The notes under the pieces: generated by a model
Told to the model about the DNA's origin: nothing
What the model saw: only the letters and a program-made list of their open reading frames with translations
The model's database searches: none
NCBI RefSeq assembly: GCF_963662555.1
Contig: NZ_OY759719.1
Coordinates: forward strand, 1,446,985 to 1,510,984
From: Thiomicrorhabdus sp.
GTDB lineage: Bacteria; Pseudomonadota; Gammaproteobacteria; Thiomicrospirales; Thiomicrospiraceae
Length of the DNA stretch: 64,000 nucleotides
Direction of reading: 5' to 3'
Program-made: the position numbers and the translations under genes
Shown here: positions 4,481 through 54,708 of the stretch, piece after piece
How the letters are laid out: each line of letters opens with the position of its first letter
Numbering within the stretch: the stretch's first letter is position 1

Positions 4481-4522
4481 TAACCAGGCCTGGTAAACTT
4501 ACGAGGCCTGGTTTTTTATTTT
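4481..4522 (+). terminator. greA terminator made from a palindrome core plus a partial second copy
   Basis: An exact ACCAGGCCTGGT core at 4483-4494 and a partial copy GAGGCCTGGTT at 4503-4513 pair with each other: AACCAGGCCT with AGGCCTGGTT, plus an inner GTAA/TTAC extension. A run of T follows. The core can also fold on itself, so two alternative hairpins are possible. Confidence 0.8.
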
Positions 4523-4591
4523 TTAAAATAACTTGGTTGAACCAAATAGTTTTATTGCTAAGACATTTTTATAAATAACGGAAAAAAGACC

Positions 4592-5077
4592 ATGAAGTTT
4601 TTTGCAGTTATAAAATCACCTGCTTTTTATTTTGCCTCTAGTCAGGTTTTATATTTAGTTTTAACCACAATGTTAATTACGGTTGGTTATATCGTTACTC
4701 CAGTTTTATTTGACCAATTAAGTTCAAAAATTGCAGGTGATATTGCAGGCATTTTGTTTCAATTTTCTGGCTATATCACATTGGCTTTTTTGGTTTTGCT
4801 TTTGATTTGGCAGTTAACTTTAAAGGTTAAGTTTAGTTTTAGTTGGCCAAATATTTTATCTTTCTCAATAATGTTGATTTTATTGTGGTGGATTAACCCT
4901 TTAATGAGTGAAATTAAAGCGAAAAATCCATTAGGTGTTACTCCTAATTCTGCTGATTGGCCTCTTTTTGCAAGTTTACACGGGGCTTACCAAATAGGCT
5001 ATCTTGTTGTAATTATTATGTTAATTTGGGGTGTGGTAAAGTCTGCAAAAGCCTTGGGATTAAGCATGATTAAGTGA
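4592..5077 (+). CDS. DUF4149-type membrane protein
   Basis: A 161-residue protein with about four hydrophobic segments (roughly residues 15-37, 52-75, 87-103 and 132-150), so an inner-membrane protein. The layout, an early hydrophobic segment with TPVLF and a late SLHGAYQIGYL segment, resembles the DUF4149/TMEM205-like family, which is often found beside greA in gammaproteobacteria. No enzymatic motif is visible and the role is unknown. It is monocistronic here, with a terminator on the greA side and a separate small secreted protein gene downstream. The family call rests on remembered similarity and context. Confidence 0.7.
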   Translation: MKFFAVIKSPAFYFASSQVLYLVLTTMLITVGYIVTPVLFDQLSSKIAGDIAGILFQFSGYITLAFLVLLLIWQLTLKVKFSFSWPNILSFSIMLILLWWINPLMSEIKAKNPLGVTPNSADWPLFASLHGAYQIGYLVVIIMLIWGVVKSAKALGLSMIK

Positions 5078-5195
5078 TAAATAAAGTTTATAAGCATTTC
5101 ATTATTTTCTAATCCAATTGGACTTGCAATTTAGTTTGAAAACAGTCAAAATTGAAGAGTTAAAGCGACAAAATCAAAACTTCGGAGTTTAATTA

Positions 5196-5552
5196 ATGAA
5201 ACAGTTAACACTAAAAGCACTATTCGTTTCTGCAATCGCGGTAATGTCTATGAACACACAAGCAGCAGACGATGTATATAACCAATGTATCGCTGATGCT
5301 GAAAACGTAATTGCAACAGCTAAGAAAGAAGGTTCTACTGCAGCAAAAGCGATTGAGCAAAAAACTGATGTAGCGACTTGCATGGGTGAGCTTTCTAAAA
5401 TTGAAGCAAAATACGGCGATAAAACAATCGCTAAAAACCCATCTTACGTAATGACTCCAGAAGATCGTGCAAAATGGGCTAAATTGTTTGATGCTATTGA
5501 TGCAAAACAATACAAAGGTGTTCCATTTTTACAAGCTTCTTACTACCGTTAA
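5196..5552 (+). CDS. Small secreted hypothetical protein
   Basis: A 118-residue protein that I cannot assign to a family. Residues 1-23 form a clear Sec signal peptide: a KQLTLK basic start, a hydrophobic core and cleavage near TQAA-DD. The mature part is about 95 residues, charged and Lys-rich, and has two cysteines (in YNQCIADA and VATCMGEL) that could form a periplasmic disulfide. The GGAG ribosome site at 5184-5187 is correctly spaced from the ATG. A strong terminator follows directly, so this is a single-gene unit. Confidence 0.8.
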   Translation: MKQLTLKALFVSAIAVMSMNTQAADDVYNQCIADAENVIATAKKEGSTAAKAIEQKTDVATCMGELSKIEAKYGDKTIAKNPSYVMTPEDRAKWAKLFDAIDAKQYKGVPFLQASYYR

Positions 5553-5572
5553 TTTGGTTGTAAGTCTTGTTT

Positions 5573-5601
5573 AAAAAACCGGCTTTATAGCCGGTTTTTT
5601 T
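5573..5601 (+). terminator. Rho-independent terminator
   Basis: Hairpin with AACCGGCT and AGCCGGTT arms around a four-base loop, with an A-run before and a T-run after. It ends the transcript of the small secreted protein gene. Confidence 0.92.
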
Positions 5602-5713
5602 GTTTTTATGATCTAATCGTTTAAACTACCGCATTAAACTTATTATTCAATAATATTTTGAGTAATGATTCATTCCTAAATTTCCTATATTTATCGCATT
5701 ATTAAGAGCCTAT

Positions 5714-6558: not shown

Positions 6559-7251
6559 ATGCCTGGTAACAACATGCAAAACTCAGTGATAAAGCTTTCT
6601 GATAAACAGCGATTACGTATTCAAACTCGTCATAAAGTGTCGATAGAACAGCATGGTTATGAACCCCAAGCGTTGTATTGGAGCAATCGTGAGATTCAGG
6701 AAAAGCGTTTTGAACAGCTGATTAAACTTTTACCGCCGCCACAAAAACTAAATCACCAGGCCTGGTCTTTATTAGACGTAGGTTGTGGTTTTGCTGATTT
6801 ACTTAACTATTTAGAAAATCGTGATTATGTACCTCAATATACAGGTGTTGATATCTCTCCTGATATTGTTTTAGCCGCTAAATCCCTTCATCCACAGCAA
6901 ACAATATTACAAGCCGAATTAGCCGATTGTGACTTTATAGAAAGCCAATTTGATTATGTCATGCTCTCTGGTGCTCTTAATGAAGTGGTTGAAACGGAAA
7001 TTGAAGGGACTGCAGACAATCAAGGTGACTACGCTAAATCTGTTATAAAACAGATGTATCTGATTGCTAAAAAGGGGGTTGCTTTTAATTTATTAGACAA
7101 TCGTCATCCTTGGGTAAAAAGCCGTTTTGATTTGCAAAGTTTTATACCCGATGAGATGGTGAATTTTTGTCAATCGTTTGCCGATGAAGTGACCTTAATA
7201 GAGGGCTATTTAGAAAACGACTTTACCCTTTATTTACTTAAAAAGACTTAA
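6559..7251 (+). CDS. Class I SAM-dependent methyltransferase
   Basis: A 230-residue cytoplasmic methyltransferase. Motif I is LLDVGCGFADLLNYL (about residues 73-87), followed by the acidic residue in YTGVDIS (about 95-101) that contacts the SAM ribose. The substrate cannot be told. A start at the internal ATG at 6574 is equally possible, since neither has a strong ribosome site. The palindrome core at 6755-6766 lies in frame and encodes His-Gln-Ala-Trp. The last codons run into a tandem decamer array (7236-7275), so the C-terminus YLLKKT and the stop codon are partly made of repeat sequence. Confidence 0.85.
   Translation: MPGNNMQNSVIKLSDKQRLRIQTRHKVSIEQHGYEPQALYWSNREIQEKRFEQLIKLLPPPQKLNHQAWSLLDVGCGFADLLNYLENRDYVPQYTGVDISPDIVLAAKSLHPQQTILQAELADCDFIESQFDYVMLSGALNEVVETEIEGTADNQGDYAKSVIKQMYLIAKKGVAFNLLDNRHPWVKSRFDLQSFIPDEMVNFCQSFADEVTLIEGYLENDFTLYLLKKT
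6755..6766. repeat. Palindrome core inside the methyltransferase gene
   Basis: Exact ACCAGGCCTGGT, read as (H)QAW in the methyltransferase frame. The flanking bases are not complementary beyond the core. Confidence 0.95.
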
Positions 7252-7310: not shown

Positions 7311-8255
7311 ATGGTACAAATACGTTTTGGCATTGATTTAGGCGGTACCAAAATTGAAATCATAGGCTTATTGGTAAAGCAAAATGATAAACAGGTTACC
7401 TCTGAAACTATTTATCAAAAGCGTATTGCAACACCAAAGGGTGACTATGCAGCCACTCTTAACGCCATTACTGATTTGGTTACCAATGCAGAAGCTGCTC
7501 TTTCTAAAGAGTACCAAAGCTTTTTACCAGGCCTGGTAGGTGTTGGTATTCCTGGAGCAATCTCTTTAAAAACAGGTAAAGTGAAAAATGCCAATTCTGT
7601 TTGGTTGATTGGTGAAGATTTGCAAGGCGATTTGCAAGCAAAACTGAATCGCCCAGTAAAATTAGCGAATGATGCGAACTGTTTTGCACTTTCTGAAGCG
7701 ACAGATGGTGCAGGACAAAATATTAACCAAGCCACTAATATCGTATTTGGTGTGATTATTGGTACGGGTTGTGGCGGCGGAGTGGTCGTTAATGGCCAAA
7801 TCCTCAATGGTATCAATGCCATTGGCGGAGAGTGGGGTCATAACCCGTTGCCTTGGATGACTCAAGATGATATTGCCATGGATTGTTATTGCGGGTTGCA
7901 AGGTTGTAATGAGACGTTTTTGTCCGGTAGTGGTTTTGAAAATCATTATTTTCAACGTACAGGCCTGGTAAAAACGGCCCAGCAAATTGTGGCTTTAAGT
8001 GAGCAGGGTGATAAAGAAGCCGAGCAATTAATGCAAGATTATATTACTTGGTTAGCTAAAGGTCTGGCGAGTGTCATTAACGTAATCGACCCCGATGTAA
8101 TTGTGCTGGGTGGCGGCATGTCAAATATTGATCGCTTATATAGAGATATCCCTAAAATTTGGCAAAAATGGGTATTTAGTGATGTGGTTGATACCAAATT
8201 GCTACCGCCAAAGTTTGGTGACTCTAGTGGGGTTAGAGGGGCGGCTTGGTTGTAA
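7311..8255 (+). CDS. ROK-family sugar kinase (fructokinase/N-acetylglucosamine kinase type)
   Basis: A 314-residue ATP-dependent sugar kinase. The phosphate-binding loop is FGIDLGGTKIEI at the N-terminus, the catalytic Asp lies in LANDANCFALSEA, and a glycine-rich segment GTGCGGGVVVNGQ follows. The ROK zinc site is complete: HNPLPW followed by CYCGLQGCNETF. No adjacent transporter or regulator narrows the substrate between fructose, glucose/mannose and N-acetylglucosamine. An exact palindrome core at 7526-7537 encodes PGLV, and a near copy at 7959-7969 encodes TGLV. The next gene downstream is an atypical pyruvate kinase. Confidence 0.88.
   Translation: MVQIRFGIDLGGTKIEIIGLLVKQNDKQVTSETIYQKRIATPKGDYAATLNAITDLVTNAEAALSKEYQSFLPGLVGVGIPGAISLKTGKVKNANSVWLIGEDLQGDLQAKLNRPVKLANDANCFALSEATDGAGQNINQATNIVFGVIIGTGCGGGVVVNGQILNGINAIGGEWGHNPLPWMTQDDIAMDCYCGLQGCNETFLSGSGFENHYFQRTGLVKTAQQIVALSEQGDKEAEQLMQDYITWLAKGLASVINVIDPDVIVLGGGMSNIDRLYRDIPKIWQKWVFSDVVDTKLLPPKFGDSSGVRGAAWL
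7526..7537. repeat. Palindrome core inside the ROK kinase gene
   Basis: Exact ACCAGGCCTGGT, extended by one pair to TACCAGGCCTGGTA. Read as Pro-Gly-Leu-Val. Confidence 0.95.
7959..7969. repeat. Near copy of the palindrome inside the ROK kinase gene
   Basis: ACAGGCCTGGT lacks one C of the left arm and is read as Thr-Gly-Leu-Val. It is the second copy in the same gene. Confidence 0.7.
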
Positions 8256-8367: not shown

Positions 8368-9921
8368 ATGTCTAGCTCAGATTTACTCAAAGAATGTTAT
8401 CAACCTTTTTCTTTGCTACAAGAAGATGTCTTAAAATTAAAACAAAATGTGATTGAACAGACTGAAATTGAGAAAGCAAAACTTAATCTCCAAGAAGCAA
8501 CAGAATCCTCTCTTTATAGTATTTTAAATCTAATCAACTACGTTGTGATGCGACGCAATGAACTTCATCCTTTGCAATCAAATTTAGCCCGTGCAGGAAT
8601 CTCTTCACTCGGGCGAGTCGAGCCACATGTTATGAGTAACATTGATTCGGTGTTGAATGTATTATCGATATTAAATACATGCCAGCCATATGAGCAAAAT
8701 AATTTATATTGTGTTGACTATGATGGTGGTTATAAACAGCTAAGATTAAGAGCCGAAAGATTATTTGGTCGCCCGCCTAAAAAGCGTTCTGAGTATATTA
8801 TGGTTACCATGCCTTCTGAGGTTTCAGATTCGGTTGAATTGGTAGAGAGCTATTTGGATGCGGGTATGAATTGTGCACGTATTAACTGTGCACATGACGA
8901 TAAAAAAACTTGGCTGAAGATGATTGAAAATATTAAAAAAGCCGCTGATAAAAATAAACAAGATTGCCGTATTTTAATGGATTTAGCGGGTCATAAAATT
9001 AGAACGGGCCACGTTTATGACCTTAAAGCTAAAAAAACTAAAAAAGCAAAAATCAAAGAAATTAGCGGAGATACTCCTCGTGTCTTTAACGGCGATTTTA
9101 TAGTGCTTTCTAAAGGCTCTGTTATTGAAAACGACATTCTTGAAAATTTTGAACCCTCTAATGTTATTGCTGTGACTTGTACCTATCCGCCAATCATAGA
9201 TATGGTTGAAGTTGGCCAATCAGTTTGGATTGACGATGGCAAAATTGGCACGGTTATCAAAGCCAAAAATAATCATGCAATATTGTTACAAGTTAAACAA
9301 GTTGGCCCTAAAGGCGTGCGTTTAAAAGAAGAAAAAGGGTTAAATTTTCCCGAAACTGATATGAACTTGCCCACTCTCAGTAAAAAAGATTGTCATGATT
9401 TAAAGTTTGTTGCAAAGCATGCTGATATGGTTGGCTTGTCATTTACCGAAGCGGCTGATGATGTGCTTTTTTTGAGAGGGATGTTGGAAGAGCTAGGTAA
9501 TGCTAACTTACCCATTTTGGTAAAAATAGAAACCTCAAAAGGTGTGAGAAATTTACCCGATATTATGCTCAATGCCTTAGCTAAAAATATGGATTTAGGT
9601 GTGATGATTGCACGAGGCGATCTTGCCGTAGAACTTGGTAGTGTGCGTATGGCTGAAATACAAGATGAAATTATTCGCTTATGTGAATCAGCTCATATTC
9701 CTGTTATTTGGGCAACACAGGTTCTGGAAAGCCTTGCTAAACAAGGTGCAATTTCACGGCCAGAAATTAGTGATGCGGCGATGTCACAAAGAGCAGAGTG
9801 TGTCATGCTTAATAAAGGGCCATATATTGCCGAGGCAGTAAAAATTTTGAGTGATGTTTTACAGCGAATGGAAGGGCATCAATTTAAAAGTCACACCCAT
9901 ATGCGTGCATTGCATTGGTAA
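8368..9921 (+). CDS. Atypical pyruvate kinase-like protein
   Basis: 517 residues. About 140 N-terminal residues of unrecognised, largely helical sequence precede a pyruvate-kinase barrel. Visible PK elements: MVTMPSE (145-151) in place of the usual first strand, GMNCARINCAHD, LMDLAGHKIRTG, a B-domain, the catalytic Lys in ILVKIETSKGV and the metal region MIARGDLAVELG, then PVIWATQVLESL. The protein stops soon after the barrel, so the usual C-terminal allosteric domain of about 110 residues is absent. The normal SGETA segment reads NKGPY. It may be an unregulated pyruvate kinase or a divergent paralogue with another phosphotransfer role. Its stop lies 5 bp from the stop of the convergent VIT gene. 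Confidence 0.82.
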   Translation: MSSSDLLKECYQPFSLLQEDVLKLKQNVIEQTEIEKAKLNLQEATESSLYSILNLINYVVMRRNELHPLQSNLARAGISSLGRVEPHVMSNIDSVLNVLSILNTCQPYEQNNLYCVDYDGGYKQLRLRAERLFGRPPKKRSEYIMVTMPSEVSDSVELVESYLDAGMNCARINCAHDDKKTWLKMIENIKKAADKNKQDCRILMDLAGHKIRTGHVYDLKAKKTKKAKIKEISGDTPRVFNGDFIVLSKGSVIENDILENFEPSNVIAVTCTYPPIIDMVEVGQSVWIDDGKIGTVIKAKNNHAILLQVKQVGPKGVRLKEEKGLNFPETDMNLPTLSKKDCHDLKFVAKHADMVGLSFTEAADDVLFLRGMLEELGNANLPILVKIETSKGVRNLPDIMLNALAKNMDLGVMIARGDLAVELGSVRMAEIQDEIIRLCESAHIPVIWATQVLESLAKQGAISRPEISDAAMSQRAECVMLNKGPYIAEAVKILSDVLQRMEGHQFKSHTHMRALHW

Positions 9922-11309: not shown

Positions 11310-11361
11310 TTACCCTATGTTCATTTGTACACTCGGTCACAGGGCATACCAGGCCTGGTAA
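11310..11361 (+). repeat. Insert-bearing palindrome, copy A (upstream of the helicase gene)
   Basis: A 52-bp element of the form TTACCCTATG, then 18 variable bases, then CACAGGGCATA running into an exact palindrome core at 11348-11359. The CCCT and AGGG parts can pair. It matches copy B at 12981-13033 at both ends but not in the middle, and lies in the same orientation. Confidence 0.9.
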
Positions 11362-12980: not shown

Positions 12981-13033
12981 TTACCCTATGCTCGCATTGT
13001 ATTAATGGCCACAGGGCATACCAGGCCTGGTAA
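12981..13033 (+). repeat. Insert-bearing palindrome, copy B (downstream of the helicase gene)
   Basis: A 53-bp relative of copy A: TTACCCTATG, 19 variable bases, CACAGGGCATA, then the core at 13020-13031. Its outermost arms, GAATTTACC on the left and GGTAAATTC on the right, are exact reverse complements. The extra sequence therefore looks like an insertion inside one arm of an ordinary palindrome. Confidence 0.9.
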
Positions 13034-21832: not shown

Positions 21833-21869
21833 ACCAGGCCTGGTTAATTCACAAATTACCAGGCCTGGT
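21833..21869. repeat. Double palindrome between prfB and lysS
   Basis: Two exact ACCAGGCCTGGT cores at 21833-21844 and 21858-21869, separated by 13 bases. Each can fold alone, or the left arm of one can pair with the right arm of the other. The position after prfB and before lysS fits a terminator, although the T-run after the second copy is broken by a G. Confidence 0.85.
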
Positions 21870-36708: not shown

Positions 36709-36742
36709 AAGCTTTTACCAGGCCTGGTAAAAGCTTTTATTT
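36709..36742. terminator. 28-bp palindrome terminator after rnc
   Basis: A perfect 28-bp palindrome (36709-36736): the core ACCAGGCCTGGT at 36717-36728 is extended by AAGCTTTT on the left and AAAAGCTT on the right, then TTTATTT. It lies between rnc and era and should at least partly separate them. Confidence 0.85.
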
Positions 36743-37802: not shown

Positions 37803-38522
37803 ATGGAGATAGAACAGTCTGCTTTTGTTCTGCATTCTCGACCTTACAGAGAAACCAGTGCCTTAGTAACTTTTTTTACCCCTGAATACGGCAAAATGAA
37901 TGGCGTAGTGCGTGGGGTAAGAGGTGGTCGCAAAACCTCATCTCAAAAAACGGCACTGTTACAACCGTTTCAAAAACTCACTATTCAGTGGAGAGAAAAA
38001 CCCAATAATCGTTCTGATTTAGTTAGTATTCAACAGATAGAAATGGCTCCACTTCGTTTTCCCTTAATGGCTGAAGCTAATATTTGCGGGTTATATATCA
38101 ATGAATTGTTATACCGCTTACTGTTTCCGCAGGTTGCCACTGAAACACTTTTTGAAATCTATCAGCAAACTTTGTATGAATTACTTGCAGCTAAACAACG
38201 TTCTGACCAGGCCTGGTCATTAAGGCAATTTGAATACCAACTGCTTACAGAAATGGGACATGGTATTCAATGCGATACAGATATGAATCAACAAGCTATT
38301 TTGCCAGATCAGGATTACTATTTTTACCCACAACATGGTGCGGTATTAGCCACTTTAGACAGTCAAAAACAAGGTGTGCCCATAAAAGGACAATGTTTGT
38401 TAGCACTTCAAGATATGCTTTATTGCGAAGCTTGTTTGCCAGATTTAAAACGCTTATTTAGAAGCGTATTAAGCATTTATTTAGGCAATAAGCCGATAAT
38501 GACTCGCGAACTTTTTAAGTAA
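37803..38522 (+). CDS. recO: DNA repair protein RecO
   Basis: Helps RecR load RecA onto SSB-coated gaps in recombinational repair. The product is 239 residues. The N-terminal OB-fold region reads AFVLHSRPYRETSALVTFFT, followed by GVVRGVRGGRK and a central helical region with NELLYRLLFPQ. It lies in the conserved rnc-era-recO-pdxJ run. The exact palindrome core at 38206-38217 falls in frame and encodes Gln-Ala-Trp within the helical domain. Confidence 0.94.
   Translation: MEIEQSAFVLHSRPYRETSALVTFFTPEYGKMNGVVRGVRGGRKTSSQKTALLQPFQKLTIQWREKPNNRSDLVSIQQIEMAPLRFPLMAEANICGLYINELLYRLLFPQVATETLFEIYQQTLYELLAAKQRSDQAWSLRQFEYQLLTEMGHGIQCDTDMNQQAILPDQDYYFYPQHGAVLATLDSQKQGVPIKGQCLLALQDMLYCEACLPDLKRLFRSVLSIYLGNKPIMTRELFK
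38206..38217. repeat. Palindrome core inside recO
   Basis: Exact ACCAGGCCTGGT, extended by two pairs to TGACCAGGCCTGGTCA. It is read as (D)QAW in RecO. Confidence 0.95.
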
Positions 38523-39878: not shown

Positions 39879-40592
39879 ATGAATAAATCGCTTGTTACTA
39901 ACTTAACAGCAGTAATTCTTATCGTTTTAGGTTACGTTTTAGAGAATACGTTTCTTTTAATGATGGGAATTTTTGCTTTGTCTGGAGCTTTAACCAACTG
40001 GTTAGCGATCTATATGTTATTTGAAAAAGTACCAGGCCTGGTAGGTTCTGGTGTGATTCCTAACCGTTTTGAAGAGTTTAAAACAGCCATTAAATCTTTA
40101 ATGATGGAACAGTTTTTTACTCAAGAAAATATAGATAAGTTTGTTTCTAACAGTGCTCAAAATTCAAAATTCGAGTTAAAACCTATTATAGAAAAAGTCG
40201 ATTTAACCCCTTCTTATGAACGTCTGGTTGAAGTGATTATGAACTCATCATTTGGTTCAATGTTAGGGATGTTTGGTGGGGCAGATGCATTAACACCGTT
40301 AAAAGAACCGTTTTTAACCAATATGCAGAGTTCATTAATCGAAATGACGCAAACCGATGAATTTCACCAAATGCTTCAAGAAGAGCTAGATCAACCCGAT
40401 GTTATGGCAGATATTCAAGCCAAAGTTGCCGAAATCATTGATGCTCGTTTAGAAGAGCTAACGCCTCAGTTGGTTAAAGAGATGGTGCAAAAAATGATTA
40501 AAGAGCATCTTGGATGGTTAGTTGTTTGGGGTGGTGTATTTGGTGCTTTAATTGGCCTAATCACTACTGCACTTATGATGATGCCGTTATAA
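39879..40592 (+). CDS. DUF445-family membrane protein
   Basis: A 237-residue protein with transmembrane helices at both ends (about 8-38 and 213-235) and a soluble helical middle, the arrangement of DUF445/YheB-type proteins. The early GALTNWLAIYMLFEKVPG followed by GVIPNRFEEFKTAI is the family signature. The function is unknown. An exact palindrome core (40031-40042) lies inside that signature and encodes PGLV. The gene ends at a near-perfect 34-bp palindrome terminator. Confidence 0.85.
   Translation: MNKSLVTNLTAVILIVLGYVLENTFLLMMGIFALSGALTNWLAIYMLFEKVPGLVGSGVIPNRFEEFKTAIKSLMMEQFFTQENIDKFVSNSAQNSKFELKPIIEKVDLTPSYERLVEVIMNSSFGSMLGMFGGADALTPLKEPFLTNMQSSLIEMTQTDEFHQMLQEELDQPDVMADIQAKVAEIIDARLEELTPQLVKEMVQKMIKEHLGWLVVWGGVFGALIGLITTALMMMPL
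40031..40042. repeat. Palindrome core inside the DUF445 gene
   Basis: Exact ACCAGGCCTGGT, extended to TACCAGGCCTGGTA, read as Pro-Gly-Leu-Val. Confidence 0.95.
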
Positions 40593-40616: not shown

Positions 40617-40656
40617 AAAGCTAAATTACCAGGCCTGGTAGTTTAGCTTTTTGTAT
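40617..40656. terminator. Palindrome terminator after the DUF445 gene
   Basis: Core at 40628-40639 with outer arms AAAGCTAAATT and AGTTTAGCTTT (one mismatch), about 34 bp in all, followed by a T-rich stretch. Confidence 0.85.
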
Positions 40657-41693: not shown

Positions 41694-41705
41694 ACCAGGC
41701 CTGGT
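41694..41705. repeat. Palindrome between the BASS transporter gene and nnrS
   Basis: Exact core; arms TT/AA extend it to TTACCAGGCCTGGTAA, followed by AAATTTTAAA. It probably acts as a terminator of the transporter gene. A short tandem AGTCAACT lies upstream near 41626-41642. Confidence 0.85.
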
Positions 41706-42937: not shown

Positions 42938-42987
42938 ATAGATTATGGGTTCATTATTTGAATTCATTATTTAAATTCATAATCTAT
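42938..42987. terminator. Hairpin between nnrS and yeeE
   Basis: Arms ATAGATTATG and CATAATCTAT enclose about 30 bases that hold two copies of TTCATTATTT. It lies between convergent genes; no strong T-run, so termination would be imperfect. Confidence 0.55.
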
Positions 42988-42996
42988 TACTCATCA

Positions 42997-44151: not shown

Positions 44152-44283
44152 ATCCCAAGATTGATAAAGATATGTTAATAAGTTTTGTTTATTAAGTATA
44201 ATTAATAAAACTAATGGCTATATTGGTTATAACCACTGTTTTAAAGATCGTTATGCCCATTGTTATTTGTAGGTTCAAAGTAG

Positions 44284-44318
44284 AAAAGTAATTTACCAGG
44301 CCTGGTAAATTACTATTT
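44284..44318. terminator. 28-bp palindrome between the HlyD gene and yeeE
   Basis: A perfect 28-bp palindrome (44287-44314): AGTAATTT and AAATTACT arms around the core at 44295-44306. After one A-A mismatch, AAA/TTT pairs follow. It probably ends the exporter operon. Confidence 0.85.
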
Positions 44319-44342
44319 TAAAAGAGACGTTAATCTTTTTGA

Positions 44343-45566
44343 TTAATTATTGATACGTGTTTTTGTGGTTTTGTTGTTTTCAACAGCATCACTAGGGTGA
44401 TTAATAATGGATTCACCTTCTACCAGGCCTGATAAAATTTGCACACTTAAACCATTGCGTTGACCAACTTTTACCTCTTGTCTTATTGCGGTGTTATTTA
44501 CATTTTTAAATACCGCCCAGCCATCTTTGTAGCGAAATAAAGCACTGGAAGGAATTTGTAATACATCGTCTTGTTGCCACAGAATAAATTGAGCTTCCAC
44601 GCGGTAACCATCACCCAAACGTTGCCACTCTTGTGTTGCAGAGGTAAAGTCACATATCACCCATACACGTTGTTCTTCTACTCCTAAAGCTGAAACTTTG
44701 GTAAAACCAACTGGTTCAATCACTCTTACAACACCCTCTAAAGGTTGTAAACCTCCCCAGCGGTCAAATAATACTTTCATACCTGGTTTGATTTTAACGG
44801 CGTCGGCAGATAGTACATCAACTTCTACTTCTAATGCAGTTGGATCACCCACCTCCAATAATGCTTCGCCAGTGATAACAGGGCCTTCACATTTACGAGC
44901 GACTTTTAAAATTTTGCCATTAATAGGTGAATTAACAGGTACACGCTCTAGGTTATTATTGTGGGGTTGCGCAGCGGAATAGTTGAGAATCGTCTTGGCT
45001 GATTGCAGTTCAAATTGAGCCACCTCAACCGCAAAAGTAGCCGAGCGTTGTTGGCTTTGTGTTGTCAGTGCAGCAGTTTTTGTTTCATCAAAGGCTTCTT
45101 GAGAAATTAAGCCTTTGGCTAAAAGCGGTTTATATCGTTTGAGTTTATCACTAGCCAGTTTAGCATTGGCTTTTGCTAAAACCACTTGCTGTTTGGCCGC
45201 TTGCAGAGCAGAATTGGCAACCGACACTTGAGCTTGTGCTTGAGCTCGGCTTCTGGCATCCAATACTTGAGATTCTAATGGGCTGATATTAAGTAGATTT
45301 TGGCCTTGAGTTACGGTGTCACCCACTTTTAAATGCATACGACAAGTCATTCCATTAATGGGCGAGGTAATCACATAACGGTCAATGACTCGAGTTCGGC
45401 CATCTTCTTGAATGCTGACGGTAAGCGGAGCTTTTTTAACTTTAACAACCTCTACCATAATTGGTTTTGGCCAAAAACCCCAGATTAGCATTGCGATAAT
45501 CAAAATGAGAGTAACCAGAATACCTGGGTGTTTAAGTAGGGTTGAATTTTTAAATGGGTTATTCAT
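44343..45566 (-). CDS. HlyD/RND-type periplasmic adaptor
   Basis: A 407-residue membrane-fusion protein. One N-terminal transmembrane helix (about residues 14-31) anchors it; the lipoyl-like half (VITSPINGMTCRMHLKVGDT, then VNSPINGKILKVARK) surrounds a coiled-coil hairpin (about 95-190), and beta-barrel domains follow. It should link the ABC permease to an outer-membrane channel, not encoded here. It is the last of three genes read ATPase, permease, adaptor. A near copy of the palindrome (44421-44432) lies in frame and encodes SGLV. Confidence 0.9.
   Translation of the reverse strand: MNNPFKNSTLLKHPGILVTLILIIAMLIWGFWPKPIMVEVVKVKKAPLTVSIQEDGRTRVIDRYVITSPINGMTCRMHLKVGDTVTQGQNLLNISPLESQVLDARSRAQAQAQVSVANSALQAAKQQVVLAKANAKLASDKLKRYKPLLAKGLISQEAFDETKTAALTTQSQQRSATFAVEVAQFELQSAKTILNYSAAQPHNNNLERVPVNSPINGKILKVARKCEGPVITGEALLEVGDPTALEVEVDVLSADAVKIKPGMKVLFDRWGGLQPLEGVVRVIEPVGFTKVSALGVEEQRVWVICDFTSATQEWQRLGDGYRVEAQFILWQQDDVLQIPSSALFRYKDGWAVFKNVNNTAIRQEVKVGQRNGLSVQILSGLVEGESIINHPSDAVENNKTTKTRINN
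44421..44432. repeat. Near copy of the palindrome in the HlyD gene
   Basis: TACCAGGCCTGA: one mismatch in the right arm (ACCAGGCCTGAT). It encodes Ser-Gly-Leu-Val on the minus strand. Confidence 0.7.
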
Positions 45567-45637
45567 AGTTAAACTCTTAATTTTTGCTGTAGATCGTTTG
45601 GATATTGACCGTTTTGTTTTTTAATCTTTATCTTTAT

Positions 45638-48025: not shown

Positions 48026-48133
48026 AAAGTTATGTTGCTCATTAATGTGTTGTTAATGAATATATCGCTGATTATTGTTTTGTGCATTATTGTCTTGTCA
48101 TTTTTATCTGCAATGCAAAGGGAGCTAAGTCAG

Positions 48134-48159
48134 TTTGTTATTACTGTTTGTTATTACTG
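48134..48159 (+). repeat. Two tandem 13-mers
   Basis: TTTGTTATTACTG occurs twice head to tail, then TTTGCTAAC, in the 156-bp spacer between the ATPase and permease genes. Confidence 0.9.
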
Positions 48160-48181
48160 TTTGCTAACTCTTATCAAGCCA

Positions 48182-48949: not shown

Positions 48950-49040
48950 AATCTAATCACGTCTTAACTATTTCACATTTGAGCTATTTTATAAAAATGC
49001 CATCAGTGTAGCCAATGTGTAAATTGATATTTTGGGCTAA

Positions 49041-49079
49041 CTTGATGGTTTAATTTGATGGTTTAACTTGATGAGTTAA
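49041..49079 (+). repeat. Three tandem 13-mers
   Basis: Copies CTTGATGGTTTAA, TTTGATGGTTTAA and CTTGATGAGTTAA lie head to tail upstream of the ABC ATPase gene, where they could affect its promoter. Confidence 0.85.
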
Positions 49080-49187
49080 CGTTAAGTATATATGAGACGA
49101 GTCAAACTAAGGGGGATTGTTTATTTATAAATTAATGTAAATCAAGAGATTGGCAAGGATTGGTAAGGCCTGTGTAAAATAGAATTA

Positions 49188-49199
49188 CCAGGCCTGGTA
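49188..49199. repeat. Palindrome downstream of the calcium-loop protein gene
   Basis: Exact core with TT/AA arms (TTACCAGGCCTGGTAA), preceded 17 bp away by a decayed relative. It lies between two minus-strand genes, downstream of the calcium-loop gene. Confidence 0.9.
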
Positions 49200-49256
49200 A
49201 AATGAACAAAGCTTAATTGAATCTAGTTCATATTTCAGCTAAGCATAATTTTAAAT

Positions 49257-50387
49257 TTAAACCACTAAATCAATCTGCTGAATGGTTCCCGCTTGCCCGG
49301 TTTCATGCAGAAAAACACCTGAACTTTTAACTTGACCGTGTTGCTGATTGTTAGAGTCGTTAAGTGCAAATTCAGTTTGTATGTTTTGTAGATTAATCGC
49401 CCCAACATTTAACTCCAATAAACCAGATAATTGATCAAAACCGTTTGGATTCTTTTGCCAAATTTGCAGTTGGCTGAAAATACTGTCATTCTCATCAATC
49501 CAACCATTACCATCCTCGTCATACTGACTGAGTTCGCTAAATCCATTACCTGTTAAAGCTCCAAACAGCTCAGAACCATCATTAATAACGCCATCTTGGT
49601 TTTTATCTAAAGCCAAGAAGCCAGAATTACTGTCAACAAATGAGATGTTATCTTTTTGACCATCTGCATCTAAATCAAATGCAAATTTATCCACGGTCAA
49701 AGAAGTTGGTTGGCCATTTAAATTAATCACTAAGGGGTCTTTAAAGATGGCTCCTTGTTGTTTTTCAAAGCTAAATTGCTGACTAAACTGGCGTGACATG
49801 CTGGAACTTAAATCAAAATTGATTGAGCGGCCATCTTCGGTAGTTACATTACCACTTGCTTGAAAATGGCTGTGCTCTTCTTCATGAAACATCTCTTTCC
49901 ATGACCAACGTTGTCCACTAGTGGGTGGTGCTGTATTGATGCTTGAGTTTTTAGCCTGTTGTGGTGCAAAGGTTGAAGTGTCGTTACTCTGTTTTGGCGA
50001 ATCGTTATAACCATACACCTCTAGTCTGAATTTTTTGCCTGTTAATCGCTCCAATAACGCTTCTATCGCAGCAATCATTTTTTGTAAATTAGGGGGCAGT
50101 TGGCTTCTTGGTCCTGAAGATTTACCATCAACCTGATTTAGATTGTTCAACCCTTGTGTTTCTTGCTGTGCTAAAGGCGTGCGGCTATTAAGTTGCCGTT
50201 GGTGATTTTCTAAGGCACTGGGTTGAATAGAGAGCGTTTTGGTATTTTGCTGAGTCTGTGTAAAGTTCATCGATTGTCGTGTAGCAAGTTGACCGTTAAT
50301 AAACGTCTCATGTACACGTTCACTTTGTCTTTGCTGCAAAAAATGATGTTGCGATTGCAATTGTATATTCTGGTCTTGTATTCTCAT
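49257..50387 (-). CDS. Protein with tandem calcium-loop (EF-hand-like) motifs
   Basis: A 376-residue protein of unknown function with no signal peptide that I can see. The N-terminal 150 residues are Gln-rich and low complexity. The C-terminal half has Asp-rich loops in the EF-hand/dockerin style: FDLDADGQKDNISFVD, DKNQDGVINDGSELFG and DEDGNGWIDENDSIF. This block (about residues 225-345) resembles domains attached to VCBS or RTX-type surface proteins in proteobacteria. Calcium binding is probable; secretion would need a C-terminal type I signal, which is not obvious. It is a single-gene unit. Confidence 0.7.
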   Translation of the reverse strand: MRIQDQNIQLQSQHHFLQQRQSERVHETFINGQLATRQSMNFTQTQQNTKTLSIQPSALENHQRQLNSRTPLAQQETQGLNNLNQVDGKSSGPRSQLPPNLQKMIAAIEALLERLTGKKFRLEVYGYNDSPKQSNDTSTFAPQQAKNSSINTAPPTSGQRWSWKEMFHEEEHSHFQASGNVTTEDGRSINFDLSSSMSRQFSQQFSFEKQQGAIFKDPLVINLNGQPTSLTVDKFAFDLDADGQKDNISFVDSNSGFLALDKNQDGVINDGSELFGALTGNGFSELSQYDEDGNGWIDENDSIFSQLQIWQKNPNGFDQLSGLLELNVGAINLQNIQTEFALNDSNNQQHGQVKSSGVFLHETGQAGTIQQIDLVV

Positions 50388-50796
50388 GAACCTATCCTGT
50401 TTTATATTGTGGATTAAAGGTTCCCTTGATTAATTTGTTATTATTTTTGGTTATATTTTTTTATATTTTTTTATATTTTTATAAATAGATATAACGGCAA
50501 CATATTAAAAACTTTAGAAAAAAATTAATAATATAAAATGATTAGAGTCGTAATTGTTTAAGCATTCTATTGTTTGATTAGGTGTTTAAGTATTTGTTTA
50601 ATATGTCTCCATAAAGGTTTACCAGCCAGAAGTAAATCAATATAAAAGCCACTTCATCTGCAATAATAAATGCAGTATTAATGCCTGTAGATTTAGCTAA
50701 GCTATAATTAAATAGTGAAGTAGCAAATACGGTTATTCATATCACGCTAGATAAGCCAATTAAAATATATTCAATCAAATAGTTAGGGTAGCTTTA
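50388..50796. other. Spacer holding a decayed gene
   Basis: 409 bp. The first 180 bp are extremely AT-rich, with a TTATATTTTT motif repeated three times near 50450-50480. The rest (50578-50793) reads on the minus strand as an interrupted membrane-protein frame. Confidence 0.6.
50578..50793 (-). pseudogene. Probable remnant of a small membrane-protein gene
   Basis: One minus-strand frame of about 71 codons is broken by a single in-frame TGA. It reads SYPNYLIEYILIGLSSVI, stop, then ITVFATSLFNYSLAKSTG, continuing through GINTAFIIADEVAFILIYFW to a TAA at 50578. The text is hydrophobic and membrane-like and lacks a Met start, whereas random sequence this AT-rich should contain about six stops. 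It fits the C-terminal remnant of an inner-membrane protein. I do not recognise the family, and a chance frame cannot be excluded. Confidence 0.4.
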
Positions 50797-51456
50797 ATGA
50801 AATCTAAAAATCAATTTTGTACTTTACCAGGCCTGGTAAATTCTGTTTTTAGTCTTTTATTATTCAGTATTTTACTGTTTAGCGTTATCTCTCTTACTGC
50901 ATGTAGCCGTGCTAAATTGCCGGCCTTACAACAAGGTGATGTGATTGTTGCTTTTGGTGACAGCCTAACAGCTGGCTATGGAGTTGATAAAAAGTACAGT
51001 TATCCAAATGTATTAGCTGATATGACAGGATTAAAAGTAATCAATGAAGGGGTTTCAGGAGAGACTACCATTCAAGGTTTGCAGCGTTTAGCCAATGTTT
51101 TAGAGAAATATTCACCCAAACTCGTTATTTTGTTAGAAGGCGGTAATGATGTACTTCAAAAAGTCCCTGAGTTACAAATCAAAGCCAATCTAGCCAAGAT
51201 GATTCAAATCATTCAAAATAGCGGTTCAGCGGTTTTATTGGTAGGAGTTCCTGAGAAAAAACTGTTTGGCAGTTCATTAGAATTATATGCAGAATTAGCC
51301 AACGAATTTAACATACCACTAGAAGATGATATTGTGGCAAACCTTATGAAAAGGTTATCCATGAAGTCAGACTACGTGCATTTTAATCAGCAAGGTTACC
51401 AAGCCATGGCAGACGCAATTTATAAACAATTACAAAGCAGTGGTGCGATTAATTAG
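50797..51456 (+). CDS. GDSL-type esterase (TesA/arylesterase-like) lipoprotein
   Basis: A 219-residue SGNH hydrolase related to TesA. The blocks are FGDSLTAGYGV (catalytic Ser), GVSGETTIQGLQRL (oxyanion Gly), LEGGNDVLQ (Asn) and SDYVHFNQQGY (Asp and His). It probably hydrolyses acyl or aryl esters. The N-terminal hydrophobic stretch ends in a lipobox, SLTAC (Cys about residue 36), so I expect an envelope lipoprotein, unlike soluble periplasmic TesA. A palindrome core at 50826-50837 encodes PGLV within the signal-peptide region. greB follows on the same strand. Confidence 0.9.
   Translation: MKSKNQFCTLPGLVNSVFSLLLFSILLFSVISLTACSRAKLPALQQGDVIVAFGDSLTAGYGVDKKYSYPNVLADMTGLKVINEGVSGETTIQGLQRLANVLEKYSPKLVILLEGGNDVLQKVPELQIKANLAKMIQIIQNSGSAVLLVGVPEKKLFGSSLELYAELANEFNIPLEDDIVANLMKRLSMKSDYVHFNQQGYQAMADAIYKQLQSSGAIN
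50826..50837. repeat. Palindrome core in the signal peptide of the GDSL lipoprotein
   Basis: Exact ACCAGGCCTGGT with TT/AA arms, read as Pro-Gly-Leu-Val ten codons into the gene. It is unusually close to the start codon and could form a hairpin in the translated leader. Confidence 0.95.
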
Positions 51457-51512
51457 AAATCCTATTTGACTTTTAAAGCTCTCCAAAGCTAAACGGAAAA
51501 TAACAAAGAAAC

Positions 51513-51989
51513 ATGAAAACCAAACTAATCACCAAACAAGGTTTTAAAAAACTCCAAGCTGAACTGGACGAACTTTGGCGTAAAGAACGTCCAGAAGTCA
51601 CCAAAATTGTCACCTGGGCAGCCAGTCTTGGAGACAGGTCGGAGAATGCAGACTACCAATACAATAAACGTCGTTTAAGAGAAATCGATCGCCGAGTACG
51701 CTTTTTAAGAAGATTCTTAGAAGAAGTAAAAATTGTTGAATACCATCCACAACAAGAAGGCAAAATCTTTTTTGGTGCTTGGGTAGAGCTGGAAGACGAA
51801 GAGGGCACAACACTTAAAATCAAAATCGTTGGTCCAGAAGAGATTTACGGTGCAAAAGACTATATCTCGATAGATTCTCCCATGGCCAGAGCCTGCATTG
51901 GCAAAACCGTTGATGATGAAGTGGTTGTAAATATACCAACGGGCAAAAAAACTTGGTTTGTGAATGCGATTAGTTATAACCAAGAATAA
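51513..51989 (+). CDS. greB: Transcription elongation factor GreB
   Basis: Stimulates cleavage of long backtracked RNA by RNA polymerase. The product is 158 residues. It is GreB rather than a second GreA because of the basic patch in the coiled coil (YNKRRLREIDRRVRFLRRFL) and the SLGDRSENADYQ tip. The C-terminal domain ends with SPMARACIGKTVDDEVVVNI. Both Gre factors are therefore encoded in this window, 47 kb apart. A 24-bp palindrome lies downstream. Confidence 0.95.
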   Translation: MKTKLITKQGFKKLQAELDELWRKERPEVTKIVTWAASLGDRSENADYQYNKRRLREIDRRVRFLRRFLEEVKIVEYHPQQEGKIFFGAWVELEDEEGTTLKIKIVGPEEIYGAKDYISIDSPMARACIGKTVDDEVVVNIPTGKKTWFVNAISYNQE

Positions 51990-52082
51990 TGATTTAACCC
52001 ACCTAAAATAAGTTTGAATTTATTAAAATCAAATCAAACCATTTTTAAGCTTCTAAGAACTCAAATATTTCAATTCAAAAAG

Positions 52083-52106
52083 CAATTTACCAGGCCTGGT
52101 AAATTG
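52083..52106. terminator. 24-bp palindrome after greB
   Basis: A perfect 24-bp palindrome: CAATTT and AAATTG arms around the core at 52089-52100. It lies 94 bp after greB; no long T-run follows, so it may terminate weakly. Confidence 0.7.
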
Positions 52107-52204
52107 TGAATTTGTAAAAAGTTACGCTACGGCTTTAACAACCTTTCAACATAGATATATTAAAGTTATTGGCGATAATGCCGTATAAACTATGGATTAA
52201 TATA

Positions 52205-52218
52205 TTTGATATATCAAA
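52205..52218. promoter_or_regulatory. 14-bp AT palindrome before the GGDEF-EAL gene
   Basis: TTTGATATATCAAA is a perfect palindrome 112 bp before the start codon. Its shape resembles a dimeric-repressor operator; no binding protein can be named. Confidence 0.35.
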
Positions 52219-52329
52219 CTTAAATTGATTAGATAAACTCTATATTCAAAACATTTCAATTGATAATTAATATTTAGCCACTACTATAAGCAAGCTTATG
52301 CATAAGCGACTTCAATAAGCAGAGATTTA

Positions 52330-54594
52330 ATGAAAAGAAATATTTGGACAGTTTATTATTTAATACTTTTTTTTAGCATCATTGGATTGCTCGGATTAGC
52401 TTATGCGAAACATTCGGAACTACACCAAAAACTGTGTGCACAGCAAGTTGCTTCGTTAAAACTCATCACTAAAAGTATTGAATCGAGTCTAACTGAAAAT
52501 GAATTACTTCTTGATATTTTAGGTTCGCGTTTACTTGAAAATGATTTATATACCGATACTGAAAAAACTCATTATCTATTAAAAAAAATGCTGGCTACTA
52601 AACCAAGTTTAGTGGGTTTTGGTCTTCTAGATATTAAAGGAAACTTTATTGCCGTCAGTGGCAATCTTGATGTCTCTCATTTACCAAACCTACTTAAAAT
52701 CCCTGATACTAAAGAAGACTTTAACGCCACTCTTAACAGTAACAAAATGGTCATAGGACGAACCTATTTTTTCAGCGGTGCTAATGATTGGGTGATACCT
52801 CTAAGAAAAACTTTGCGTGACCAGAACGGTAAACCGATTGCTGTCATGGCGACAGGTTTAAAAGTAAAAGATCTAGCTAAGGTAAATGGTTTACCTCAAC
52901 AGAATGAATTAAGACTTGCTATGATTAATGCTCGGAGCAAATATCGAGTTTATGTCAATGATATTGATGAAAGTTTTTTTCATAAAGCTTATGAAAACGC
53001 TATTACAGACGATGATTTAAAATCAATAAACGAGGTGATGGTTGATAAGTACGGGTTTACTCTTAAAGAAATCAAATTGAAGTTACCTGATACTGCCGTT
53101 AGCGGGGAAGCAATAGATACCTTAACTAAAGAGCCTGTAATTGGTTCTTTAATATACAATTCAAAATATGATCTTTGGATTACTCTAAAGCAGGCTGATT
53201 CATTTTTAAGAAATGATTTTGTACATTATCTTGAAGTTTATCTTTTAATATTTTTGATTGTTCATCTTATATTTATTTGGCTAGTAAAACGTATTCATGA
53301 TAACGAAGCCTCATCCTTAAATAAACTTCAGTATCAAGCTGATCACGATCCTTTAACAGGATTATATAATCGATACTATCTTGAAAAAGAGTTTCCCAAA
53401 CTACTAACCGAACAAGCCAACGATATTAGTTTGCTGTTTGTTGATTTAGATAATTTTAAGCATATTAATGATACTTTTGGGCATACTGCGGGCGACAAGC
53501 TTCTTCTTCAAGTAACACAAAGACTTAAAACATTTTCGTCATATGCTCAATACATTATTCGCTTTGGTGGTGATGAGTTTGTTGTGGTTATGAAAAATCA
53601 AACACAACATGACTTTAATATCGCAAAACAAATTATTGAGACAATTAGCGTCAGTTATTTAATTGATGGCATTAATTTCACTATTGGTGCAAGTATTGGT
53701 ATTGCTAGGGATAAAGGGAATAGCTGTACTTTAAGCAATTTATTGAGCCATGCTGACTTAGCTCTATATGAGGCAAAAAACTACAAAAATTGGGTAGAGG
53801 TTTTTTCTGAAAATTTGCAGTTAAAATCACAAAAACGATCCGCTATTGAGCACCACTTGAGAACGGCCATAGAGAATAATGAAATTTATCTAAACTACCA
53901 ACCACAAGTAAATAAAGATGGAGAACTGCATGGGGTTGAGTGCCTTGTTCGTTGGCAGAGCCCTAATTTAGGATTTGTGCCACCTAATGAATTTATTCCC
54001 ATTGCCGAAGAAATTGGCCTTATGCCATTACTAGGGCAACGTATTACAAACCTTGCATTAACGGAAATTGGGATGCTTCAAGAAAAATTAAATGGTCGTT
54101 TTCAAATATCCATTAACGTCTCCATTAAACAGTTTATGCAAGAAAACTTTTTTGAAGAATTCATTTCTTGTGTACAAAAAAGTCGTATTCCATTTAAGTA
54201 CATCACGCTTGAAATTACTGAATCGCTTCTTATTGAGGATATCGATTTTATTCTTTCAATGCTTCACCAATTCCGTCGAAAAGACATCTCTATTTCATTA
54301 GATGACTTTGGAACGGGGTATTCATCTCTTAGTCTATTAAGACAACTTCCTATTCAAGAGCTTAAAATTGACAAAGCTTTTGTAGACGATATTTTAGATG
54401 ACTCAAAAGATGCTACTTTAGTGAAGAATATCATCAATATCGGAAATGAATTTGGTATGCATACCTTAGCGGAAGGTGTTGAAACAAAAGAACAAGTTGA
54501 GCAATTAACTCATTTTGAATGTGACTTATATCAAGGTTACTTTTTCTCTAAACCAATCAATATAAAAGACCTAGAAGCTTTTATTAAAAAATAG
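52330..54594 (+). CDS. Membrane GGDEF-EAL cyclic-di-GMP protein
   Basis: A 754-residue sensor that can make and degrade cyclic-di-GMP. Transmembrane helices near 7-25 and 298-317 flank a periplasmic sensing region. The GGDEF domain (about 335-490) has an intact RFGGDEF site but lacks the usual upstream RxxD inhibitory motif. The EAL domain (about 500-754) has ECLVRW in place of EALVRW, while its other catalytic parts (NVSIKQF, EITES, DDFGTGYSS, LAEGVE, QGYFFSKP) are intact. So both activities are possible, with a phosphodiesterase bias plausible. No operon partner is present. Confidence 0.92.
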   Translation: MKRNIWTVYYLILFFSIIGLLGLAYAKHSELHQKLCAQQVASLKLITKSIESSLTENELLLDILGSRLLENDLYTDTEKTHYLLKKMLATKPSLVGFGLLDIKGNFIAVSGNLDVSHLPNLLKIPDTKEDFNATLNSNKMVIGRTYFFSGANDWVIPLRKTLRDQNGKPIAVMATGLKVKDLAKVNGLPQQNELRLAMINARSKYRVYVNDIDESFFHKAYENAITDDDLKSINEVMVDKYGFTLKEIKLKLPDTAVSGEAIDTLTKEPVIGSLIYNSKYDLWITLKQADSFLRNDFVHYLEVYLLIFLIVHLIFIWLVKRIHDNEASSLNKLQYQADHDPLTGLYNRYYLEKEFPKLLTEQANDISLLFVDLDNFKHINDTFGHTAGDKLLLQVTQRLKTFSSYAQYIIRFGGDEFVVVMKNQTQHDFNIAKQIIETISVSYLIDGINFTIGASIGIARDKGNSCTLSNLLSHADLALYEAKNYKNWVEVFSENLQLKSQKRSAIEHHLRTAIENNEIYLNYQPQVNKDGELHGVECLVRWQSPNLGFVPPNEFIPIAEEIGLMPLLGQRITNLALTEIGMLQEKLNGRFQISINVSIKQFMQENFFEEFISCVQKSRIPFKYITLEITESLLIEDIDFILSMLHQFRRKDISISLDDFGTGYSSLSLLRQLPIQELKIDKAFVDDILDDSKDATLVKNIINIGNEFGMHTLAEGVETKEQVEQLTHFECDLYQGYFFSKPINIKDLEAFIKK

Positions 54595-54625
54595 CCTATA
54601 TAACAGGAATTAGATCAATCGAGTC

Positions 54626-54657
54626 TGACCCCATTGAGGTTTGACCCCATTGAGGTT
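54626..54657 (+). repeat. Two tandem 16-mers
   Basis: TGACCCCATTGAGGTT occurs twice head to tail directly after the GGDEF-EAL gene. A GAGTCTGACCCC string of this type is common next to REP-associated transposase remnants, which is a recollection rather than something seen here. Confidence 0.9.
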
Positions 54658-54672
54658 TTGAAAGTAAATTAT

Positions 54673-54708
54673 TAAACCCAATTTACCAGGCCTGGTAAAT
54701 TGGGTTTA
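54673..54708. terminator. 36-bp perfect palindrome, the longest in the window
   Basis: TAAACCCAATTT and AAATTGGGTTTA arms around the core at 54685-54696. It lies between convergent genes, as expected of a bidirectional terminator. Confidence 0.85.

What the first reader, a model, noticed from the sequence alone, without database searches (positions are those of the whole stretch)
4483..54696. A dispersed 12-bp perfect palindrome ACCAGGCCTGGT occurs 17 times in 64 kb
Exact copies start at 4483, 6755, 7526, 11348, 13020, 21833, 21858, 36717, 38206, 40031, 40628, 41694, 44295, 49188, 50826, 52089 and 54685. At this base composition a 12-mer of this sequence is expected about 0.001-0.004 times, so the excess is several thousand-fold. 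About ten near copies exist (for example 4503, 7959, 26501, 28000, 44421, 59399 and 62621). Twelve exact copies are intergenic, although most of the window is coding. I know of no described element with this core. Models include an uptake sequence for natural transformation (as in Neisseria or Pasteurellaceae), a HIP1-like iterated palindrome, or a nucleoid-protein site.
Basis: seen in the sequence. Interest (0 to 1): 0.88.

Follow-up and report, generated by a model that had tools for sequence, protein, structure and literature searches.

The report
Palindromic uptake-like sequence in Thiomicrorhabdus
A 12-base palindrome is scattered hundreds of times over the chromosome of a marine sulfur-oxidising bacterium, and its relatives carry their own dialects of it, some with a direction; it looks like the 'own DNA' tags that some bacteria prefer when taking up DNA, though uptake has not been tested.

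Summary
In detail: 17 exact copies in the window, 488 in the closed 2.70-Mb genome (reversed control 0). The organism is a Thiomicrorhabdus or close kin. Copies are randomly spaced, occur in every gene context and are densest between genes, above all convergent ones. Genic copies share A/T flanks; copies behind genes gain extra dyad symmetry, as hairpins would; genic and divergent copies do not. Of 62 family genomes, 32 are rich in the core CAGGCCTG with differing flanks, one has 1,025 copies of ACCGGCCGGT instead, five carry oriented, non-palindromic forms whose close pairs are inverted (13 of 13, four genomes sampled), 24 have none of these. This is the anatomy of DNA uptake sequences. Against it: uptake untested, no receptor found, ComEC does not track the element, a T-rich tail does not mark gene-end copies, and a true palindrome is not known to me among uptake sequences. 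Two methyltransferase families do not track it, and uniform spacing argues against origin/terminus-patterned sites. Best reading: an uptake-type element in a further bacterial family, 0.6.

The parts
4483..4494 (.). exact 12-mer, intergenic, behind greA, tandem genes; a 1-mismatch copy follows at 4501
4501..4512 (.). 1-mismatch copy ACGAGGCCTGGT
6755..6766 (.). exact 12-mer inside methyltransferase-like ORF 6559-7251
7526..7537 (.). exact 12-mer inside ORF 7311-8255 (peptide LPGLV)
11348..11359 (.). exact 12-mer, intergenic, between divergent ORFs
13020..13031 (.). exact 12-mer, intergenic, between tandem ORFs
21833..21844 (.). exact 12-mer, intergenic, first of two copies 25 bases apart
21858..21869 (.). 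exact 12-mer, intergenic, second of the pair
36717..36728 (.). exact 12-mer between rnc and era; 28-base perfect palindrome, terminator-like on both strands; AGGCCT is kept in the rnc-era gap of some relatives
38206..38217 (.). exact 12-mer inside recO; the core lies at the corresponding place in 14 of 15 core-rich genomes examined (this one counted)
40031..40042 (.). exact 12-mer inside ORF 39879-40592; core at the same place in 9 of 15 core-rich genomes examined (this one counted)
40628..40639 (.). exact 12-mer, intergenic, terminator-like stem of 15 pairs on the + strand, the strand of the gene before it
41694..41705 (.). exact 12-mer, intergenic, 16-base palindrome
44295..44306 (.). exact 12-mer, intergenic, 28-base palindrome, terminator-like on the - strand behind ORF 44343-45566 (-)
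44422..44433 (.). 1-mismatch copy inside ORF 44343-45566
49187..49198 (.). exact 12-mer, intergenic, 16-base palindrome
50826..50837 (.). exact 12-mer near the start of ORF 50797-51456
52089..52100 (.). exact 12-mer, intergenic, 24-base palindrome, terminator-like on the - strand although both neighbours are on +
54685..54696 (.). exact 12-mer between convergent ORFs, 36-base perfect palindrome (not listed by the terminator scan)
59397..59408 (.). 1-mismatch copy AGCAGGCCTGGT inside ORF 58579-59811

Best explanation
The palindrome is this species' form of a DNA-uptake-type sequence: a short tag that builds up over the chromosome because a DNA receptor of natural transformation prefers DNA that carries it, so that tagged alleles are taken up and recombined more often (molecular drive). 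The DNA-level element is about 22 bp: A/T arm, half-site ACCAGG, dyad, mirror half-site, mirror A/T arm. Being a palindrome it would be read alike from either strand. Copies behind genes were in addition built into hairpins, probably terminators. SHOWN here: excess, random spacing, context, A/T flanks also in genic copies, extra dyad only behind genes, dialects including oriented ones with inverted pairs, lack of all these forms in other relatives. INFERRED: receptor preference, uptake, drive, and termination.
For: 488 exact copies and 904 of the core, reversed controls 0 and 1. Per 20 kb over 40 stretches: 12-mer mean 3.80, variance 3.45; core 7.03 and 7.00; no positional trend, with approximate stretch positions. 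103 of 169 exact copies intergenic although 87.7% is coding by my caller; per kb 1.50 convergent, 1.02 tandem, 0.61 divergent, 0.087 genic. Contiguous complementarity beyond the 12-mer: genic 1.05 (shuffled 0.81, max 1.23), divergent 1.87 (1.79, max 2.67), tandem 2.94 (1.97, max 2.31), convergent 4.00 (2.68, max 3.42). Dialects: core-rich 32 of 62 genomes with differing flanks; ACCGGCCGGT 1,025 copies in G023, at most 15 in the other 61; oriented forms in 5 of 62 genomes, 157-372 matches each, at most 5 in the other 57, reversed controls at most 2. In four of these five, 140 kb sampled each, 13 of 13 close pairs are inverted, 1.3 pairs of any orientation expected, and densities run convergent or tandem above divergent above genic, as for the palindrome. 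For Neisseriaceae DUS, dialects that follow phylogeny, a kept CTG core and inverted pairs at terminators are described (PMC3630211, passages). ComEC is in 56 of 62 genomes, G000 included.
Against: No uptake experiment, and two searches for transformation in Thiomicrorhabdus and Hydrogenovibrio listed 1 and 2 papers, none on it by title or start of abstract and none opened; Thiomicrospira was not searched so. ComEC does not separate carriers: 20 of 24 genomes without any element form have it. PF12019 (GspH/FimT) is found in 3 of 62 genomes, all without the element; no receptor candidate emerged. The palindrome has no hidden direction in G000 and G023 (z 0.5 and 0.1), unlike uptake sequences known to me. 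A T-rich tail does not mark gene-end copies: 27% tandem, 33% convergent, 27% divergent, 17% genic. One core per about 3 kb is sparser than in Neisseria or Haemophilus (recalled). Oriented copies of G082 are slightly unbalanced (131 and 176, p 0.012).
Confidence: 0.6

Rival explanations
1. Binding site of an intracellular dimeric DNA-binding protein that organises the chromosome, kept by selection at several hundred sites.
For: True dyad without direction in G000 and G023; A/T flanks also in coding copies; some sites held at the same place across species, for example recO in 14 of 15 core-rich genomes examined.
Against: No regional pattern: dispersion index 0.91 and 1.00, Rayleigh p 0.75 and 0.98; five relatives have oriented, non-palindromic forms; 24 of 62 family genomes lack all forms found.
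Confidence: 0.17
2. A HIP1-like iterated palindrome kept through an orphan DNA methyltransferase or an unknown replication or repair process.
For: Iterated palindrome, genic and intergenic, lineage-restricted, like HIP1 in cyanobacteria (PMC4390886, start of abstract and passages).
Against: PF00145 and PF01555 are both absent from 13 of 32 core-rich genomes, G000 among them; other methyltransferase families were not searched. HIP1 is described as one fixed octamer, with a longer form in two cyanobacteria, whereas this has dialects and oriented forms.
Confidence: 0.12
3. A Chi-like recombination signal.
For: Dispersed, frequent, sequence-specific, with oriented forms in relatives.
Against: Whole-genome strand counts balanced in 4 of 5 oriented carriers (bias per replichore not tested), preference for intergenic and convergent sites, palindromic in most carriers; Chi is oriented and mostly in coding DNA (recalled).
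Confidence: 0.05
4. Only an intrinsic transcription terminator with a favoured stem sequence.
For: 4 of 10 exact copies in window 36000-55500 overlap terminator-like hairpins, 3 of the 4 on the strand of the gene before them; extra dyad behind genes.
Against: 66 of 169 exact copies are inside genes and 15 between divergent genes, with the same A/T flanks but no extra dyad; T-rich tails are no commoner behind genes than between divergent genes.
Confidence: 0.04
5. A dispersed mobile repeat (REP, MITE) or a local accident.
For: Short, palindromic, mostly intergenic.
Against: No shared sequence beyond about 22 bp, dialects across species, coding copies in three frames, 488 copies genome-wide.
Confidence: 0.02

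Closest known systems
DNA uptake sequences (DUS) of Neisseriaceae
   Same: Short, dispersed, dialects that follow phylogeny, inverted pairs at terminators, intragenic copies common (PMC3630211, passages)
   Different: DUS is non-palindromic (recalled) and its receptor ComP is known (abstract starts); here the main form is a palindrome with A/T arms on both sides, the family is Thiomicrospiraceae, and uptake and receptor are unknown
Uptake signal sequences (USS) of Pasteurellaceae
   Same: Oriented forms with an A/T tract on one side (G021, G082, G083, G087) resemble USS layout (recalled); inverted USS pairs as terminators (PMC5217627, passage)
   Different: Core AAGTGCGGT in Haemophilus; palindromic forms here; the proposed USS receptor ComN/PpdA (PMC12616744, abstract) was not tested here
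HIP1 of cyanobacteria
   Same: Highly iterated palindrome, lineage-restricted
   Different: No match in G000 to the two methyltransferase families searched; dialects and non-palindromic forms; hairpins behind genes
SlmA, MatP, Noc or ParB sites (recalled)
   Same: Short palindromes bound by dimers
   Different: Those are fewer and patterned around origin or terminus; here density is uniform

Membership tests
DNA uptake sequence (DUS/USS) | Hundreds of copies, far above chance, dispersed over the chromosome | tested here: met
   488 exact, 904 core, reversed controls 0 and 1; random spacing
DNA uptake sequence (DUS/USS) | Dialects in related species | tested here: met
DNA uptake sequence (DUS/USS) | Inverted pairs or hairpins behind genes | tested here: met
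   Oriented forms: 13 of 13 close pairs inverted in four sampled genomes; palindrome: extra dyad behind genes only, but no commoner T-rich tail there than between divergent genes. Termination not assayed
DNA uptake sequence (DUS/USS) | Non-palindromic, oriented core | tested here: not met
   Not met in the window's genome and G023; met in G021, G082, G083, G087 and by pattern count in G004
DNA uptake sequence (DUS/USS) | Raises uptake or transformation | not testable with these tools
   needs an uptake assay
DNA uptake sequence (DUS/USS) | Competence machinery with a specific receptor | tested here: inconclusive
   ComEC in 56 of 62 genomes but not tracking the element; no receptor found
HIP1-type iterated palindrome | Matching orphan DNA methyltransferase | tested here: not met
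   PF00145 and PF01555 both absent from 13 of 32 core-rich genomes, G000 among them; other methyltransferase families not searched
Intrinsic terminator (as sole nature) | Located behind genes, paired stem, T-rich tail | tested here: not met
   66 of 169 copies genic; a subset only fits
Chi or KOPS | Strand bias along the replichore | tested here: inconclusive
   Whole-genome strand counts balanced in 4 of 5 oriented carriers, G082 slightly skewed; bias per replichore not tested
Origin- or terminus-patterned nucleoid sites | Non-uniform density along the chromosome | tested here: not met
Dispersed mobile repeat | Shared sequence beyond the core | tested here: not met

The most novel reading that the evidence does not exclude
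Thiomicrospiraceae have their own system of DNA self-recognition tags, separate from those of Neisseriaceae and Pasteurellaceae, whose tag exists both as perfect palindromes readable from either strand and as oriented forms, so that the change between directional and symmetric recognition can be followed inside one genus; the A/T-tract plus poly-C elements of one clade without the palindrome may be a further dialect.
Probability: 0.5. Interest if true: 0.9.

Novelty: new variant of a known kind. Interest (0 to 1): 0.82.

Why it matters
Uptake sequences are known to me from two bacterial families (also the two named in the abstract start of PMC7811141). A third, in free-living sulfur oxidisers and with palindromic, oriented and absent states inside one genus, would give a natural series for asking how tag and receptor change together, whether drive alone builds the tags, and how a symmetric tag is recognised. 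It would also give a marker of DNA exchange in these bacteria and perhaps a practical way to transform them.

Tried and rejected
Methyltransferase partner: PF00145 and PF01555 do not track the element. FimT/GspH as receptor: 3 of 62 genomes, all without the element. Pilins of G000 in the sampled third: 12 pattern hits, 9 of them scanned against NCBIfam, most matching only by the N-terminal domain, plus type II secretion pseudopilins; no candidate singled out. ComEC as discriminator: no. Hidden direction of the palindrome: none in G000 or G023; faint and unproven in G025 and G005 (z 1.9 and 1.8). Rfam and tRNA scans of the window: nothing. Viral contigs: 36 stretches with TACCAGGCCTGGTA, one copy each; 6 of the 36 stretches have 2 to 7 copies of the core, not followed up. 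Search for other motifs in 17 of the 24 genomes without the element, 14-40 kb each: nothing strong except the poly-C tracts reported below; the other 7 were not sampled for this (G001 only 3.5 kb), so rarer dialects may be missed. Literature: 10 searches, with shorter motif strings, matched 100 papers, 15 listed, none of the 15 on this subject by title; the other 85 were not seen.
Full report
WHAT WAS CHECKED. The 12-mer ACCAGGCCTGGT occurs 17 times exactly in the window, as reported (one coordinate off by one), and 27 times with up to two mismatches against 1.08 expected. The window lies in a closed genome of 2,696,250 bases; there the 12-mer occurs 488 times, the reversed control 0 times. 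The best Era matches that bear a genus name are Thiomicrorhabdus, 89-90% identity, so the organism is a Thiomicrorhabdus or very near it; its own record is unnamed.

DISTRIBUTION IN THE GENOME. In 40 spread 20-kb stretches the 12-mer count has mean 3.80 and variance 3.45, that of the core CAGGCCTG 7.03 and 7.00: a random scatter. There is no trend along the chromosome (with approximate stretch positions). In 864 kb including the window, 103 of 169 exact copies are intergenic, five times the share of intergenic DNA; per kb, convergent gaps hold 1.50, tandem 1.02, divergent 0.61 and genes 0.087 (home-made gene calls, 87.7% coding). Within genes, core copies are spread evenly, while the 66 exact 12-mers lean somewhat to the first part (35 of 66 in the first 40%). 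They read as xPGLV, TRPG or xQAWx.

ANATOMY. The extended consensus is close to AATTTACCAGGCCTGGTAAATT. The A/T flanks are present in genic copies too, where the two flanks are not more complementary to each other than re-paired flanks. In tandem and convergent gaps they are more complementary than in any of 200 re-pairings; between divergent genes they are not. So a DNA-level element of about 22 bp exists everywhere, and copies behind genes in addition look like hairpins. A T-rich tail, however, is found after 27% of tandem, 33% of convergent, 27% of divergent and 17% of genic copies, so the terminator role is inferred from the dyad, not from the tail. In window 36000-55500, 4 of 10 exact copies overlap terminator-like sites (23 sites found, 15.0 expected with sd 4.1), 3 of the 4 on the strand of the gene before them; the copy at 54685, a 36-base perfect palindrome, was not among them.

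CONSERVATION OF SITES. Stretches holding lepA to recO were fetched from 20 relatives. With G000, 15 of the 21 genomes are core-rich. The recO copy stands at the corresponding place (offset 391-427 from the match start) in 14 of 15 core-rich and 1 of 6 core-poor genomes; the copy in the ORF at 39879 in 9 of 15. Intergenic copies stay in the same gap in some relatives, but outer arms differ between species, both arms together, as in AAAAATGAGCAGGCCTGCTCATTTTT of G008.

DIALECTS. Over 62 family genomes, CAGGCCTG is abundant (236-1,173 copies, reversed controls at most 28) in 32 and low (at most 74) in 30. Named genomes counted: Thiomicrorhabdus arctica 522, T. chilensis 900, Thiomicrospira microaerophila 909, Thiomicrospira sp. 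WB1 668, Hydrogenovibrio sp. SC-1 479. Of the 37 family genomes counted for the full 12-mer, five are core-rich but hold only 6-38 copies of it (G002, G005, G008, G018, G025); in the samples read, G or A often replaces C beside the core in G005, G008, G018 and G025 (G002 gave 4 copies only). In 21 genomes of other families of the class the 12-mer occurs 0 or 1 times. One core-poor genome, G023, has 1,025 copies of ACCGGCCGGT; the other 61 have at most 15. Five more carry an oriented form: AANYYRMCAGGYYGGG matches 157-372 times in G004, G021, G082, G083 and G087 and at most 5 times in the other 57, reversed controls at most 2. Consensus AAAATCTgCCAGGCTGGG (G082), AAAATCTgCCAGGTTGGG (G083, G087), about AAacTcAACAGGCCGGGT (G021); G004 was only counted. 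In 140 kb from each of these four, the 13 close pairs are all inverted and 21-31 bases apart, against 1.3 pairs of any orientation expected; densities run convergent or tandem above divergent above genic in each. Strand counts over the genomes are balanced in four of five, slightly skewed in G082. 24 of 62 genomes show none of these forms. On a LepA tree of 32 genomes the CAGGCCTG-rich state needs at least 5 changes, 3 of them forced by well-supported branches.

CANDIDATE PARTNERS. ComEC is in 56 of 62 genomes and in 20 of the 24 without the element. PF00145 and PF01555 methyltransferases are each in 24 of 62 and both absent from 13 of 32 core-rich genomes, G000 among them. PF12019 is in 3 of 62, none with the element. 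No receptor is proposed.

INTERPRETATION. Random dispersion, tolerance of genes but preference for gaps, dialects, oriented forms with an A/T tract in relatives, and inverted pairs behind genes are together the anatomy known for uptake sequences; for Neisseriaceae, dialects following phylogeny, a kept CTG core and inverted pairs at terminators are described (PMC3630211, passages). The element differs in being a true palindrome in the window's genome: an orientation-finding test found no hidden direction. Hence the membership row on orientation is marked not met, and the claim is that it works like an uptake sequence, not that it is proven to be one. The main rival is a dimeric chromosome-organising protein: symmetry and some conserved sites favour it, uniform spacing and the oriented forms count against it.

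LIMITS. Gene calls are crude. Genomes without the element were sampled by 14-40 kb, 17 of 24 of them. Completeness of some relatives is 79-88%. Uptake, binding and termination are not assayed. Papers: PMC4390886, PMC1852404, PMC5217627, PMC6501319 and PMC3630211 were seen as passages, PMC12616744 as abstract and outline, others as listings; none was read whole.

Noticed in passing
L100, L002, L226, L219, L220, L156, L164, L165, L168 (genomes G017, G012, G022, G028, G001): Dispersed C7-C12 tracts preceded by an A/T tract, 25-89 per 100 kb (G001 from 3.5 kb only) against 0-3.6 in 19 other genomes compared; 36 of 48 lie in genes. Four of the five carriers group on the LepA tree (the fifth, G022, was not in it). 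Possibly a further dialect, possibly unrelated.
   Followed up: partly
L103:500-3400: K-mers repeated every 405 bases: a tandem array in G000.
   Followed up: no
L210-L211 (G083): Strongly repeated local k-mers such as CCACAGCGG, 34 copies in 40 kb, probably a repetitive gene.
   Followed up: no
L267-L302: 36 viral stretches with one TACCAGGCCTGGTA each; one of them has 7 copies of the core CAGGCCTG and may come from a host of this family.
   Followed up: no
window 28880-28920: A half-decayed copy, TTTACCAGGCCTTTATACC, beside a short C/G-rich inverted repeat.
   Followed up: no
window 8368-9921: A 517-aa ORF whose residues 144-482 match the pyruvate kinase barrel, with a long N-terminal extension.
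   Followed up: no
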